A stretch of 64,000 nt of DNA from the NCBI RefSeq assembly GCF_000176915.2, contig NC_014844.1, forward strand, positions 1,426,001 through 1,490,000. The letters are read 5' to 3'. The notes below the pieces were generated by a model. That model was not told the origin of the DNA. It did no database searches and saw only the letters and a program-made list of their open reading frames with translations. The stretch is from Pseudodesulfovibrio aespoeensis Aspo-2 (GTDB lineage: Bacteria > Desulfobacterota > Desulfovibrionia > Desulfovibrionales > Desulfovibrionaceae). Both the position numbers and the translations under genes were made by a program. Below, piece after piece: positions 24,047-27,809 of the stretch. Each line of letters opens with the position of its first letter. The stretch's first letter is position 1.

Positions 24047-24138
24047 TTTCTCTGGTAGCGGGGATAGGACTTGAACCTATGGCCTTCGGGTTATGAGCCC
24101 GACGAGCTACCAACTGCTCCACCCCGCGTCACGTGAGA
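24047..24138. repeat. 92-bp perfect direct repeat, copy 1
   Basis: Contains the whole initiator tRNA plus 6 bases on its 3' side and 10 bases on its 5' side. It is identical to 27718-27809 and in the same orientation. The sequence outside differs at once on both sides. The two copies bracket the repeat-peptide operon. Confidence 0.9.
24053..24128 (-). tRNA. Initiator tRNA-Met (CAT), copy 1
   Basis: The 76-base sequence folds into a standard cloverleaf with anticodon CAT and an encoded CCA end. Two initiator hallmarks are visible: an unpaired first position (C1 against U72) and three consecutive G-C pairs in the anticodon stem (GGG and CCC around CTCATAA). It is identical to copy 2 at 27724-27799. 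It has its own promoter and terminator. Confidence 0.95.
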
Positions 24139-24449: not shown

Positions 24450-24977
24450 CTAGTTTTGATCCTTCCGGCCGTCCTGCCCGCCCGCGGTCAGCATTTCCGT
24501 ATCGATTTCGAGGAAAATGTCCGCCGGGGTCTGGTTGAGGCGAGACGTTTCGTCGTATTCGCGGAAGCCCTGTCGCATGAGCAGGCCGAGGGCGGCCGTA
24601 TTGTCCCGCGCGCAGTCCGTGGTGATCCTTCGGATTCCGAGGCGGCGGCAGTTGGATGCGATGGCGTGGAGCAGGGCCGAGGCGATTCCCCGACGCCGGT
24701 GGGCCGGGACGACCACGGCCGAGGTCAGGTGCGCCCTGCCTTCGGGAACGAGCTGCGTCAGCGCCGCGTCGATGTAGGACATGGCCCCGGCCAGCGTGCC
24801 GTCCCGTTCGGCGATGAACACCGCGCCCTGCTCCAGTTGCCTTTCGAGCAGGTGTAGGTATCCCCGCGCCGCATCGTCGCCCGGCGGGACGTTCCATTCG
24901 TGCAGCAGGTTTTCGTAAAGGCGGCTGATGGCCTCGATGTCCGTCCTCGTCGCCGTTCTTATGTCGTGCTTTCGCAT
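24450..24977 (-). CDS. GNAT-family N-acetyltransferase
   Basis: A 175-residue single-domain acetyltransferase. The acetyl-CoA motif A is visible as SAVVVPAHRRRGIASALLHAI (Q/RxxGxG/A type, RRRGIA), followed by the N-T-AALGLLMRQGF motif B. Its ATG overlaps the end of the deaminase-like gene by 19 bases, so it is the last gene of the four-gene operon that starts with the repeat peptide. A role in acetylating the mature product, either as tailoring or as self-protection, is an inference from position only; GNAT substrates cannot be read from sequence. Confidence 0.85.
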   Translation of the reverse strand: MRKHDIRTATRTDIEAISRLYENLLHEWNVPPGDDAARGYLHLLERQLEQGAVFIAERDGTLAGAMSYIDAALTQLVPEGRAHLTSAVVVPAHRRRGIASALLHAIASNCRRLGIRRITTDCARDNTAALGLLMRQGFREYDETSRLNQTPADIFLEIDTEMLTAGGQDGRKDQN

Positions 24978-25975
24978 CGTCCCGCTCCGATGAAACAGGA
25001 TTGGAATGAGTTTGCCGCCAATCGGCGCAGCTCCGGGATGTCCATGCCATATTCGCGGCCCGCCTTGCAGTATTCGGAGACGAGGTCGCAGCCGAATATC
25101 GCGGGATCATCCGTGTGCAGACTCACGTTCAGTCCCGCTTCAAGCATGGCGCGAAGGGGATGCGCTCCCGGAGGCACGACGCCCAGGCGTTCGTTGCTCG
25201 TCAGGCACACCGTGACGGGCGTGCGGTTCCTTGCCAGGAGCGCCGTCGCCTTGGGTTCCTCAAGCACCGTCGTCGCATGTTCGACGCGGTCCGGTCGCAG
25301 CGCCAGGAGCGTTTCGAGGATCGTGCCCCGGACCTGCTCGCCGACATGTACGCTGGTGCGATACCCCAGCGCTCGCGCCGATTGGAACACTTGGGTGAAG
25401 GCGCTCGGCGGATGGCTGTTTTCAGCGCCTCCGAGGCCGAATCCAGCGACCACGCCGGGATCGCAGCGGGCCGTCTTGTCGAGGAGCCGCATGGCGTGCT
25501 CCGGGCCCGCGTCCCGGATCATATCCACGACCACGCCTCCGCTCGTGCCGTGGCGCCGGGAGGCCGTATGAAATGACTCCTGGAATGCGCCGAGGACACT
25601 CGCAATGGGGAATTCCGGAAAGAGCGGCAGCGCAACCATGATTTCCACATGGCGGACGCCGAGCGTGTGCGCCCGTTCGAGATAAAGGCAGGCGTGCCGC
25701 CGGATATCGTCCACGGTCCGGATCACGGCTCGGCGTTGGAAGTATTCCCGGACGAAATCGTCCGTGGACATCCGCACCGGAGACGATACGCCCGGCCGGT
25801 CCGTGGGGCCGGCCGGGGCATCGATGGCGCCCAGGAAGTGCACATGCGTTTCCGCCTTGGGCAGAGCGGCCGTCAACTCGGCTAGACTTGGGGCGGCGAT
25901 GACGGACAGTCTCCTCGCGCTTGGCAGATCGGCTCCGGGAATGTCTCGAAGTGCGATTTTTGGGCGGAATTCCAC
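24959..25975 (-). CDS. Adenosine deaminase-family hydrolase
   Basis: A metal-dependent amidohydrolase of the adenosine/AMP deaminase family. All metal and catalytic positions are visible: HVH (residues 44 and 46, in KAETHVHFLGAI), GLGGAEN, HVGE, EHA and TDDPAIF. The annotated GTG at 25975 makes the gene overlap the radical SAM gene by 94 bases; a TTG at 25876, five bases after that gene's stop, would still keep all motifs and may be the true start. Next to a radical SAM enzyme, deamination of the by-product 5'-deoxyadenosine is a possible role. A nucleoside or peptide substrate cannot be excluded. Confidence 0.8.
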   Translation of the reverse strand: MEFRPKIALRDIPGADLPSARRLSVIAAPSLAELTAALPKAETHVHFLGAIDAPAGPTDRPGVSSPVRMSTDDFVREYFQRRAVIRTVDDIRRHACLYLERAHTLGVRHVEIMVALPLFPEFPIASVLGAFQESFHTASRRHGTSGGVVVDMIRDAGPEHAMRLLDKTARCDPGVVAGFGLGGAENSHPPSAFTQVFQSARALGYRTSVHVGEQVRGTILETLLALRPDRVEHATTVLEEPKATALLARNRTPVTVCLTSNERLGVVPPGAHPLRAMLEAGLNVSLHTDDPAIFGCDLVSEYCKAGREYGMDIPELRRLAANSFQSCFIGAGRCESTT

Positions 25976-26829
25976 AATTCCTTCATCCCCGATTCACGCA
26001 GGGAGCCCACCACGGAGGAAGGAACCAGCGAACAGGCCACCATGTCGAGGTTCGGAGCGATGCCCACGTGCGTGCCGCAGGCGGTGCAGCCGTGCCCCTC
26101 GGCCGTGGATTCCCGGAACAGGGAGGTGGCGGTTGGCGAGCACATCATCTGCGGGTGCGAGACACGGATATCCGGGAAATTCCGCATCTGTTCGGCGAGC
26201 AGTGCGTAGGAGTCGCGGAGCTGTTCATCCGTGGGCATGAGGGAGTCGAGCTCTCGTGTGGGACGCTCCGGCGGCATCAGGTTCATGAAGTGGAAGGCCC
26301 GGATGGTCGGGTGGAAGGCATGGAAAAGGTCCCCCAGCCGGTCCTTGTTGACCGTGGTGATCACGGTGGCGATTTGCGGCGTGAGGCCGTTTTCGGCCAG
26401 GGTGTGGATGAACTGCCTCACGGAAGCGGTCTTGCCTCGCGTGCGGTCGTTGACCGCCTCCGAAGGATGGTCCAGCGATACCTGGACGACGAACGGGTGG
26501 ATGTTCTTGTGGCATTCCGCGAGCCGCACCGCGAGTTCCGGCGATTCCGTGCCGTTGGTGAGGACGGAGACGGACATTCTCGTCTGGATGGCGGCCTCCA
26601 GGATGCGGAAGAAGTCCGGGTGCCGCAGCGGCTCCCCTCCGGCCAGCAGCAGGAGGAAGACGCCCATTTCATCCATTTCCGCAAGCAGTTCGAGGAACCG
26701 TTCCGTGTCGATGTGCCGCTCTTCCTTCCAATGGCTCGCATAACAGTAGCGGCACGAAAGGGAACAGCTCGTGGTGATGTCCGCCTGGACCCAGAGCGGC
26801 CCCCGAAGCGTTATTTCGTCTCGTCCCAT
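25882..26829 (-). CDS. Radical SAM peptide maturase with SPASM/twitch-like tail
   Basis: A 315-residue radical SAM protein. The [4Fe-4S]-SAM motif CSLSCRYC gives cysteines at 22, 26 and 29, and LLLLAGGEPLRHPDFF is the GGEP SAM-binding motif. The tail holds six more cysteines (230, 248, 251, 266, 302, 308), with CTACGTHVGIAPNLDMVAC resembling SPASM/twitch domains of RiPP maturases. It has no N-terminal RRE domain of its own; an RRE-like domain is instead fused to the neighbouring repeat peptide. Its ATG overlaps the peptide gene by 19 bases. The likely substrate is that peptide. Confidence 0.9.
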   Translation of the reverse strand: MGRDEITLRGPLWVQADITTSCSLSCRYCYASHWKEERHIDTERFLELLAEMDEMGVFLLLLAGGEPLRHPDFFRILEAAIQTRMSVSVLTNGTESPELAVRLAECHKNIHPFVVQVSLDHPSEAVNDRTRGKTASVRQFIHTLAENGLTPQIATVITTVNKDRLGDLFHAFHPTIRAFHFMNLMPPERPTRELDSLMPTDEQLRDSYALLAEQMRNFPDIRVSHPQMMCSPTATSLFRESTAEGHGCTACGTHVGIAPNLDMVACSLVPSSVVGSLRESGMKELWNSAQKSHFETFPEPICQARGDCPSSPPQV

Positions 26830-27395
26830 AACCCGACCTTGCGCAGGACAGATATGAATTGCTTCTGGACGTCTTCATCTGCCTTGAAGGATCGGAAGAT
26901 GTCCTTCGGCGCCTCGCCCGCTGCGATGGCGGCGATGGCCTTTGCCGCGTCCGCATCGGCCTTGAGCACGACCTGGCTGATGGGATCGAAGACGATTGCA
27001 CCGAATTCCTCTTCGCGGATGATGACCCGGCCCAGCGGGTGCGCCGACTTGACCGGTCCCGTGGTGGCCGACTTCCATTTTTCGGGTTTCGAGGAGTACA
27101 CGGACGGCCAGGTCCGCTCATCCGCCACCTGGTGGACGGCGGGCCACCATTTTGTTTCGGCGCGTTCGACTGGGGCGTGGACCGCCGGCCACCATTTGGT
27201 TTCTGACCGTACCACTTCGGCGTGGACGGCGGGCCACCAACGAGTGGCGCCTTCCTCGACCACGGAGTGGACGGCGGGCCACCAACGAGTGGCGCCTTCC
27301 TCGACCACGGAGTGGACGGCGGGCCACCACTTCGTGCCGGGCTTGCTCGCGTAGAACTCCTGTGTGAGCGTCGCCAGATAGATTTCGACCTTCAT
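26811..27395 (-). CDS. Repeat-core precursor peptide fused to a PqqD/RRE-like domain
   Basis: A 194-residue protein with a strong AGGAGG seven bases before its ATG. Residues 1-20 form a short head. Residues 21-94 are five tandem units of 15 (last 14) residues, each T-K/R-WWPAVH-xxVxxxx; a degenerate WPSVY follows at 96-100 and a lone W at 107. Residues 119-194 look like a PqqD-type RiPP recognition element, with FGAIVFDP, an Ala-rich helix and FISVLRKVGLW. It is followed with overlap by a radical SAM enzyme. The reading as a multi-core RiPP precursor carrying its own recognition domain at the C-terminus is an inference. I know of no described family with this repeat. Confidence 0.82.
   Translation of the reverse strand: MKVEIYLATLTQEFYASKPGTKWWPAVHSVVEEGATRWWPAVHSVVEEGATRWWPAVHAEVVRSETKWWPAVHAPVERAETKWWPAVHQVADERTWPSVYSSKPEKWKSATTGPVKSAHPLGRVIIREEEFGAIVFDPISQVVLKADADAAKAIAAIAAGEAPKDIFRSFKADEDVQKQFISVLRKVGLWDETK
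27114..27335 (-). repeat. Five tandem 45-bp coding repeats (WWPAVH units)
   Basis: Units start at 27335, 27290, 27245, 27200 and 27155 on the minus strand; the last is 42 bases. The first two are almost identical in DNA, while units 3-5 have diverged outside the WWPAVH core. This pattern suggests recent unit duplication with selection on the six-residue core. Confidence 0.9.
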
Positions 27396-27434
27396 CTCGC
27401 ATCCTCCTGTTTATACGATGAAAAACCTGAGGCG

Positions 27435-27473
27435 ATAGCACAAGGCTATTAATTTATAGATAGAATAGCACAA
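27435..27473. promoter_or_regulatory. Candidate operator: 9-bp direct repeat at the operon promoter
   Basis: ATAGCACAA occurs at 27435-27443 and 27465-27473, 30 bases apart (about three helical turns). The second copy overlaps the -10 box and the first lies in the early transcribed region. This suggests a repressor site. Confidence 0.4.
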
Positions 27474-27491
27474 TATCAAAAAAAATGTCAA
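27462..27491 (-). promoter_or_regulatory. Strong candidate promoter of the repeat-peptide operon
   Basis: On the minus strand, a consensus TTGACA (27486-27491) is followed 18 bases later by TATTCT (27462-27467), in an AT-rich patch that stands out from its surroundings. The leader to the start codon is about 60 bases. Confidence 0.7.
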
Positions 27492-27717: not shown

Positions 27718-27809
27718 TTTCTCTGGTAGCGGGGATAGGACTTGAACCTATGGCCTTCGGGTTATGAGCCCGACGAGCTACCAACTGCTCCACCCCGCGT
27801 CACGTGAGA
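27718..27809. repeat. 92-bp perfect direct repeat, copy 2
   Basis: Identical to 24047-24138, same orientation, offset by 3671 bases. It holds the second initiator tRNA plus 6 and 10 flanking bases. Confidence 0.9.
27724..27799 (-). tRNA. Initiator tRNA-Met (CAT), copy 2
   Basis: Identical over all 76 bases to the copy at 24053-24128, with anticodon CAT, the C1-U72 mismatch, three G-C pairs closing the anticodon stem and an encoded CCA end. It has an independent promoter and terminator, so both copies look functional. Confidence 0.95.

What the first reader, a model, noticed from the sequence alone, without database searches (positions are those of the whole stretch)
24959..27395. Possible new RiPP system: five-repeat WWPAVH peptide with fused RRE-like domain, radical SAM enzyme, deaminase-like hydrolase and GNAT
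Seen: four minus-strand genes (27395 to 24450) with overlapping starts. The first encodes five 15-residue units with an invariant WWPAVH core and ends in a PqqD-like domain. The second is a radical SAM protein with a cysteine-rich tail. Known: RREs bind precursor peptides for radical SAM RiPP maturases, and several such enzymes crosslink aromatic side chains. Inference: each unit is a modified core and W/H residues are crosslinked or otherwise altered. I know of no described family with this core, though I cannot search.
Basis: partly seen in the sequence, partly recalled or inferred. Interest (0 to 1): 0.95.

Follow-up and report, generated by a model that had tools for sequence, protein, structure and literature searches.

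The report
Self-guided multi-copy radical-SAM peptide precursor
A bacterium carries a small gene cluster whose first protein strings together five copies of one six-residue peptide motif, with its own docking-type domain at the end, next to an iron-sulfur radical enzyme that probably modifies each copy; one distant relative with the same layout was found, so it looks like a rare modified-peptide system whose chemistry is still unknown.

Summary
P1 (26811-27395, minus; 194 aa) has a 22-residue leader, five 15-residue units with invariant WWPAVH, and a C-terminal domain that profile comparison places with PqqD/RRE domains (hhalign score 33.6; best of 200 column shuffles 20.7). It overlaps a 315-aa radical SAM gene (Pfam Radical_SAM and SPASM over cut-off) with no room for an N-terminal RRE, then an adenosine-deaminase-family gene and a GNAT. 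No Pfam or NCBIfam model hit P1 at E up to 1; none of the 25 best NCBIfam models shown for the radical SAM reached its cut-off. One relative of the same layout was found: a Polaromonas plasmid encodes a 131-aa leader-core-RRE protein 12 bases upstream of a homologous radical SAM gene, with FFGWMH at residues 23-28, where P1 has its first WWPAVH. That plasmid has no relative of the deaminase or GNAT, so the minimal unit seems to be precursor-RRE fusion plus radical SAM. Best reading: a multicore RiPP precursor carrying its RRE in cis. The modification is not shown; an aromatic-to-His or beta-carbon crosslink is a guess. The cluster is cargo between two tRNA-Met genes; P1 was found only in this genome among 348 of its order. 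New variant of a known kind.

The parts
26811..27395 (-). P1: precursor protein, 194 aa: leader, five cores, linker, C-terminal RRE-like domain
   Evidence: ORF; no Pfam/NCBIfam family at E up to 1; homologue in L007
27330..27395 (-). leader, residues 1-22 (MKVEIYLATLTQEFYASKPGTK)
   Evidence: ungapped similarity to the Polaromonas leader; 165 of 200000 permutations score as high with MK fixed
27105..27329 (-). five 15-residue units, each beginning WWPAVH (27285-27329, 27240-27284, 27195-27239, 27150-27194, 27105-27149)
26814..27059 (-). RRE (PqqD-like) domain of P1, about residues 113-194
   Evidence: hhalign of P1+Polaromonas against 22 PqqD-like domains: probability 87.6, score 33.6; 0 of 200 column shuffles reach it, maximum 20.7; predicted E-E-H-H-H, pLDDT 52
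25882..26829 (-). radical SAM protein, 315 aa; CSLSCRYC at residue 22; C-terminal Cys C248, C251, C266, C302, C308
   Evidence: PF04055 1.6e-21, PF13186 23.8 bits over cut-off 21.5; best NCBIfam TIGR03962 MftC 93.4 bits, cut-off 265
24959..25975 (-). adenosine-deaminase-family protein; HVH, HVGE, RVEH and HTDDP motifs kept
   Evidence: PF00962 2.5e-46; TIGR01430 182.2 bits, cut-off 216.55; aligned to PDB deaminases
24450..24977 (-). GNAT acetyltransferase, 175 aa
   Evidence: PF00583 2.4e-16
27462..27491 (-). sigma-70-like promoter TTGACA-18-TATTCT with TG before the second hexamer
   Evidence: 2 sites found, shuffle mean 1.1, so weak by itself
27403..27408 (-). AGGAGG ribosome-binding site, 7 bases before the P1 ATG
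   Evidence: sequence
27724..27799 (-). tRNA-Met (CAT) on the upstream side of the cluster
   Evidence: ARAGORN
24053..24128 (-). tRNA-Met (CAT) on the downstream side; 92 identical bases with the other copy

Best explanation
P1 is a multicore RiPP precursor that carries its own recognition domain. The 22-residue N-terminal leader probably adds a strand to the C-terminal RRE-like domain of the same chain (inferred from how known RREs bind leaders), looping the five WWPAVH cores out between them. The radical SAM protein, which has no RRE of its own, docks on this complex and modifies each core in turn (inferred). The two members found share two aromatic residues at core positions 1-2 and His at position 6, so the likeliest product is a bond from an aromatic ring to His or to a beta-carbon inside the hexamer (guess). 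Cleavage after the T(K/R) before each core would release several copies (inferred; no protease is in the cluster). The deaminase most likely clears 5'-deoxyadenosine or a related nucleoside by-product, and the GNAT caps the product or protects the cell (both weak inferences).
For: Repeated hexamer invariant while spacers drift; RRE-like domain by profile-profile comparison with shuffle control; radical SAM starts its CxxxCxxC at residue 22, leaving no space for an RRE, and has a SPASM-type tail; overlapping genes suggest one operon; independent homologue with leader, an aromatic-aromatic-x-x-x-His hexamer at the identical residues 23-28, and RRE-like domain, 12 bases upstream of a homologous radical SAM gene; the best NCBIfam scores of the radical SAM include peptide maturases (MftC, StsB).
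Against: Only one other member of the same layout was found. The RRE is missed by PF05402 at E up to 10; a plain RRE profile gives the domain only 6.1 bits, reached by 3 of 1000 shuffles (941 scored), and the full protein 3.5 bits, reached by 5 of 1000 (625 scored). AlphaFold confidence was low. The core comparison was made after seeing the sequences; by substitution score WGGVLH (residues 72-77, inside the Polaromonas RRE region) is closer to WWPAVH than FFGWMH is (16 against 6). NCBIfam also ranks heme, MoaA and other non-peptide enzymes among its 25 shown hits. No protease or exporter lies among the four genes. Relatives of the deaminase and GNAT are missing from the Polaromonas plasmid.
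Confidence: 0.62

Rival explanations
1. The precursor-radical SAM pair makes a small redox cofactor or metal-binding peptide in the manner of PQQ or mycofactocin, with the five repeats simply raising yield; the product stays in the cell.
For: Best family score of the radical SAM is to MftC (93.4 bits) with PqqE and the tungsten-cofactor maturase also listed; no exporter among the four genes; of 17 loci found by profile in the Acidobacteria-centred sample, the nine I put in the tree all fall in one set with MftC.
Against: Far below the equivalog cut-off (93.4 vs 265); the window protein itself lies outside that MftC set; no dehydrogenase or other user of such a cofactor among the four genes; P1 found in no other genome of the order.
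Confidence: 0.25
2. P1 is not a precursor but a repeat protein (binding, scaffold or regulatory) and the radical SAM protein acts on something else.
For: No modification has been shown; tandem W-rich repeats also occur in binding proteins (general knowledge); the RRE assignment is at the edge of detection.
Against: The Polaromonas protein keeps the leader and RRE-like domain but has one core-like hexamer, beside a homologous radical SAM gene; the hexamer is invariant while spacers drift.
Confidence: 0.13
3. Radical SAM plus deaminase act on nucleotides (viperin-like antiviral chemistry or nucleoside antibiotic synthesis), and P1 is a regulator.
For: PADLOC pVip models hit the radical SAM (69.8 bits, 6.3e-20), and the deaminase is of the adenosine deaminase family.
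Against: NCBIfam viperin 51.3 bits against a cut-off of 180, cytosylglucuronate decarboxylase 46.6 against 400; MftC scores higher; SPASM tail present.
Confidence: 0.04

Closest known systems
Mycofactocin maturase MftC with MftA/MftB (TIGR03962 and partners)
   Same: Radical SAM with SPASM-type tail, a PqqD-like RRE and a short precursor in one operon (L141); highest NCBIfam score of the radical SAM
   Different: RRE is a separate protein (MftB) there and fused to the precursor here; single C-terminal core (recalled) vs five WWPAVH; 93.4 bits against cut-off 265
Darobactin/dynobactin and other radical SAM crosslinked RiPPs
   Same: Trp-rich cores and radical SAM enzymes; darobactin has Trp-Trp ether and Lys-Trp bonds (abstract start seen in the listing, PMC9055067); a His link in dynobactin is recalled
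   Different: Not compared by sequence here; single core and no RRE fused to the precursor (recalled)
Polaromonas sp. W10N plasmid pW10NP1 pair (WP_181375059.1, WP_181375060.1; unnamed)
   Same: Leader + hexamer at residues 23-28 + RRE-like domain in one protein, radical SAM gene directly downstream; radical SAM proteins 28-30% identical
   Different: One core-like hexamer (FFGWMH); no relative of the deaminase or GNAT on the plasmid; a divergent methyltransferase gene on the other side
Small plasmids of Klebsiella (5) and Escherichia marmotae (1) with a radical SAM gene
   Same: Small protein beginning MKIKLL with a Trp-rich stretch, beside a radical SAM gene that matches the window's (5e-20 and 2e-18)
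   Different: 74 aa, divergently transcribed, has at most the first half of an RRE; its RRE-profile score is reached by 10 of 1000 shuffles (931 scored)

Membership tests
RiPP (radical SAM type) | Ribosomal precursor with leader and core beside a maturase | tested here: met
   P1 layout and overlap with the radical SAM gene; homologous pair in L007
RiPP (radical SAM type) | Post-translational modification of the core | not testable with these tools
   needs mass spectrometry
RRE / PqqD domain | Match to PF05402 | tested here: not met
   no hit at E up to 10
RRE / PqqD domain | Profile similarity to PqqD-like domains over the whole domain | tested here: met
   hhalign 66 columns, score 33.6, 0 of 200 shuffles; plain HMM weaker (6.1 bits, 3 of 1000 shuffles)
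RRE / PqqD domain | Three strands and three helices | tested here: inconclusive
   E-E-H-H-H at pLDDT 52; only PDB match is an RRE, 5v1u_B, E 6.4
Radical SAM | CxxxCxxC and fold | tested here: met
   PF04055 1.6e-21; CSLSCRYC
SPASM | PF13186 over cut-off | tested here: met
   23.8 bits vs 21.5; of the tail Cys only C248, C266, C302 are shared with Polaromonas, so it may be a one-cluster twitch form
Mycofactocin system | MftC equivalog cut-off | tested here: not met
   93.4 bits vs 265
Viperin (pVip) | NCBIfam viperin cut-off | tested here: not met
   51.3 bits vs 180; PADLOC pVip 69.8 bits, no cut-off given
Adenosine deaminase | TIGR01430 equivalog cut-off | tested here: not met
   182.2 bits vs 216.55; family PF00962 met
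Sactipeptide | Cys in the core as thioether donor | tested here: not met
   P1 contains no Cys

The most novel reading that the evidence does not exclude
A new RiPP class in which the precursor carries its RRE in cis and presents an array of identical cores, each turned by a stand-alone radical SAM enzyme into a small ring joining the aromatic pair to His; the product is released in several copies per chain, and minimal two-gene versions travel on plasmids.
Probability: 0.3. Interest if true: 0.85.

Novelty: new variant of a known kind. Interest (0 to 1): 0.62.

Why it matters
In the parts of two RRE papers that I read, the recognition domain is a separate protein or fused to a larger biosynthetic protein. 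A precursor that brings its own would make a two-gene, self-contained modification module, easy to move and to engineer, and its repeated core gives five chances per chain to see the modification by mass spectrometry. It also shows how such systems can escape genome mining: neither P1 nor its relative is caught by the Pfam PqqD model.

Tried and rejected
Flanking tRNA-Met copies as integration scars: rejected. By my reading each copy has its own promoter-like upstream stretch and terminator (terminators of the window copies), and of the 20 relatives I fetched (20 of the 32 other genus genomes with the neighbour gene) 11 have a tandem pair and 9 a single copy.

Repeats elsewhere: a scan of 84,980 species for two WWPxxH in a row gave 51 stretches, viral contigs 11. 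Read frame by frame they look to me like chance or low-complexity sequence; in none of the 62 held stretches does an ORF match the three radical SAM queries at 1e-8, and two (L089, L115) resemble P1 only through W-P-H repeats, E 6e-5 and 8e-5.

Radical SAM relatives: own genome only at E 1e-30 in 348 genomes of the class and at 1e-24 in 395 of the phylum. 0 of 300 (order of a Comamonadaceae genome), 0 of 143 (class of a Gammaproteobacterium), 4 of 140 (phylum of a Myxococcales genome), 16 of 145 (phylum of an Acidobacteria genome); searches had no positive control and show little. Of the 21 loci (3.5-3.9 kb each), none has a P1-like ORF and three have a PqqD-like ORF. Phage records: 8 weak radical SAM matches, not followed.

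A tree of 36 radical SAM proteins leaves the window protein unresolved (weak set 65/55 with Polaromonas, the enterobacterial pair and two others). phmmer of the domain against PDB gave no RRE. AlphaFold of full P1 failed (pLDDT 41). BLASTP of the domain to MftB: no useful match (14.6 bits). A DNA search of E. coli genomes with the E. marmotae pair: no match.
Full report
What is there. Four overlapping minus-strand genes: P1 (194 aa), a radical SAM protein (315 aa), an adenosine-deaminase-family protein (338 aa from a GTG start) and a GNAT (175 aa). P1 has AGGAGG seven bases before its ATG and a promoter-like site upstream (2 found where shuffles give 1.1, so not strong). WWPAVH occurs five times in P1's frame and in no other frame of the window. 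The repeat period is 45 bases. Units 1 and 2 are identical; among units 1-4 the spacers have drifted while the core has not changed a residue, and unit 5 has the same core. A shadow ORF of 477 aa lies on the other strand; the homology below argues for the minus strand.

The C-terminal domain. Pfam and NCBIfam give nothing for it at E up to 10. I collected 22 PqqD-like domains from 21 of the 30 loci returned by a PF05402 search in 99 genomes of the phylum, one locus giving two; nine loci were left out by eye because my ORF choice failed or picked another frame or gene, or because the ORF was fused, extended or a near-copy. A plain HMM of these is not decisive: P1's domain gets 6.1 bits, reached by 3 of 1000 shuffles (941 scored); the full protein 3.5 bits, 5 of 1000 (625 scored); the Polaromonas protein 2.9 bits, 0 of 1000 (573 scored); the Klebsiella one 3.7 bits, 10 of 1000 (931 scored). 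Profile against profile, with P1 and the Polaromonas protein as the query alignment, gives probability 87.6 and score 33.6 over 66 columns; 200 column shuffles reach at most 20.7, the reversed alignment 16.3, P1 alone 25.0 and Polaromonas alone 17.3. The predicted structure is of low confidence but shows two strands and three helices; its single Foldseek match in 350,542 PDB chains is the RRE TbiB1 (5v1u_B), at E 6.4 and probability 0.08. I take RRE-like as well supported by the profile test and only hinted at by the fold.

The radical SAM protein. CxxxCxxC starts at residue 22, so it has no N-terminal RRE, unlike SkfB, whose match starts at residue 110 of its chain (that SkfB has an RRE there is recalled). 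Radical_SAM and SPASM models are over cut-off. NCBIfam listed 68 families and showed 25; none shown reaches its cut-off, the best being MftC at 93.4 of 265 bits. Aligned with the Polaromonas protein, C248, C266 and C302 of the tail are shared.

The relative. On Polaromonas plasmid pW10NP1 a 131-aa 'hypothetical protein' ends 12 bases before a radical SAM gene. The radical SAM proteins are 28% identical over query residues 8-288. The two precursors match by BLASTP over the RRE region (14 of 49 identical, E 5e-5 for the single comparison). Their first 22 residues align without gaps; 165 of 200,000 permutations score as high. Both have six residues at 23-28 that start with two aromatics and end with His: WWPAVH and FFGWMH. 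This last point was noticed after the fact; a hexamer inside the Polaromonas RRE region scores closer to WWPAVH. The whole 20.8-kb plasmid has no relative of the deaminase or GNAT by tblastn at E 0.01. Searches of plasmids with either precursor gave no further member among the rows shown: the Polaromonas protein hits only itself, and of P1's 615 records, all under 60% identity and from enterobacteria, the 20 listed are LPD7 proteins (19) or a TraC primase (1) at E 2e-3 to 8e-2.

A looser group. Five Klebsiella plasmids of 4.8 kb and one E. marmotae plasmid of 7.7 kb carry a radical SAM gene that matches the window's (5e-20 and 2e-18) beside a divergent 74-aa protein (91% identical between the two kinds) with a Trp-rich stretch. 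Whether that protein holds half an RRE is open.

Distribution and site. Of 348 genomes of the order only this one has P1 at E 1e-3. Of 20 relatives whose 10-kb region I fetched, none has any of the four genes there at 1e-8. The site lies between two tRNA-Met genes; in the relatives this tRNA is a tandem pair in 11 of 20 and single in 9; starts are 174-341 bases apart in nine pairs, 2.1 kb in one (a repressor-like ORF between) and 4.8 kb in one (carbon-monoxide dehydrogenase-type genes); gene names here are my reading of the ORFs. So the cluster is cargo in a variable slot. I saw no integrase in the 3.6 kb, though only the four genes were run against families.

Deaminase and GNAT. The deaminase keeps the HxH, HxGE, H and DD positions when aligned to solved deaminases (which residues are catalytic is recalled); its HFLGA stretch is nearer to 4gxw_A (HLLGA) than to 3ou8_A, the two aligned entries that cover it. 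It is the only such gene found in this genome and absent from 20 relatives at 1e-10. Radical SAM enzymes make 5'-deoxyadenosine, which is toxic, and a deaminase for it is cited from Methanocaldococcus (passages of PMC6079011). That this deaminase does the same is inference.

Print record. WWPAVH is in no held paper. Further searches for precursor-RRE fusions, multicore precursors with RRE, or such repeats in Desulfovibrio showed no description in their listings (30 of 47 listed; 30: 7 of 7; 78: 1 of 1; 107: 15 of 77; 108: none held). I read passages and section 6 of PMC12710340 and passages of PMC7470986; those parts describe RREs as separate or fused to larger proteins. PMC12710340 also notes that 21% of PF05402 proteins are larger than a lone RRE without another Pfam domain, so fused precursors could be hidden there. 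Supplements were not read.

Verdict. The chemistry, the release step and the roles of the last two genes are unknown.

Noticed in passing
window 24047-24138 and 27718-27809; L156 2174-4203; L161 2165-6918: A tandem tRNA-Met pair is a variable slot in this genus: 9 of 11 fetched relatives with a pair have under 350 bases between the starts, one holds a repressor-like ORF, one what look like cooS/cooC/CRP/TauE-type genes (my reading), and the window the peptide cluster.
   Followed up: partly
L006 988-2239; L132 2143-3391: Small Klebsiella and E. marmotae plasmids carry a radical SAM gene and a divergent 74-aa Trp-rich protein (91% identical between the two), possibly another compact peptide-modification pair.
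   Followed up: partly
L135 3563-4999: A conjugative E. coli plasmid carries a 478-aa radical SAM protein downstream of a recombinase gene; similar hits are listed for other E. coli plasmids and one of Salmonella. Function not clear.
   Followed up: no
L196 1090-1707: One ORF reads through what look like two PqqD-like domains in tandem, next to a radical SAM gene, in a genome of the same phylum.
   Followed up: no
window 27240-27329: Units 1 and 2 of the repeat are identical over 45 bases, suggesting a very recent duplication, so unit number may vary between strains.
   Followed up: no
L007 4718-5545: A SAM methyltransferase gene lies divergently beside the Polaromonas precursor and may be a tailoring enzyme there.
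   Followed up: no
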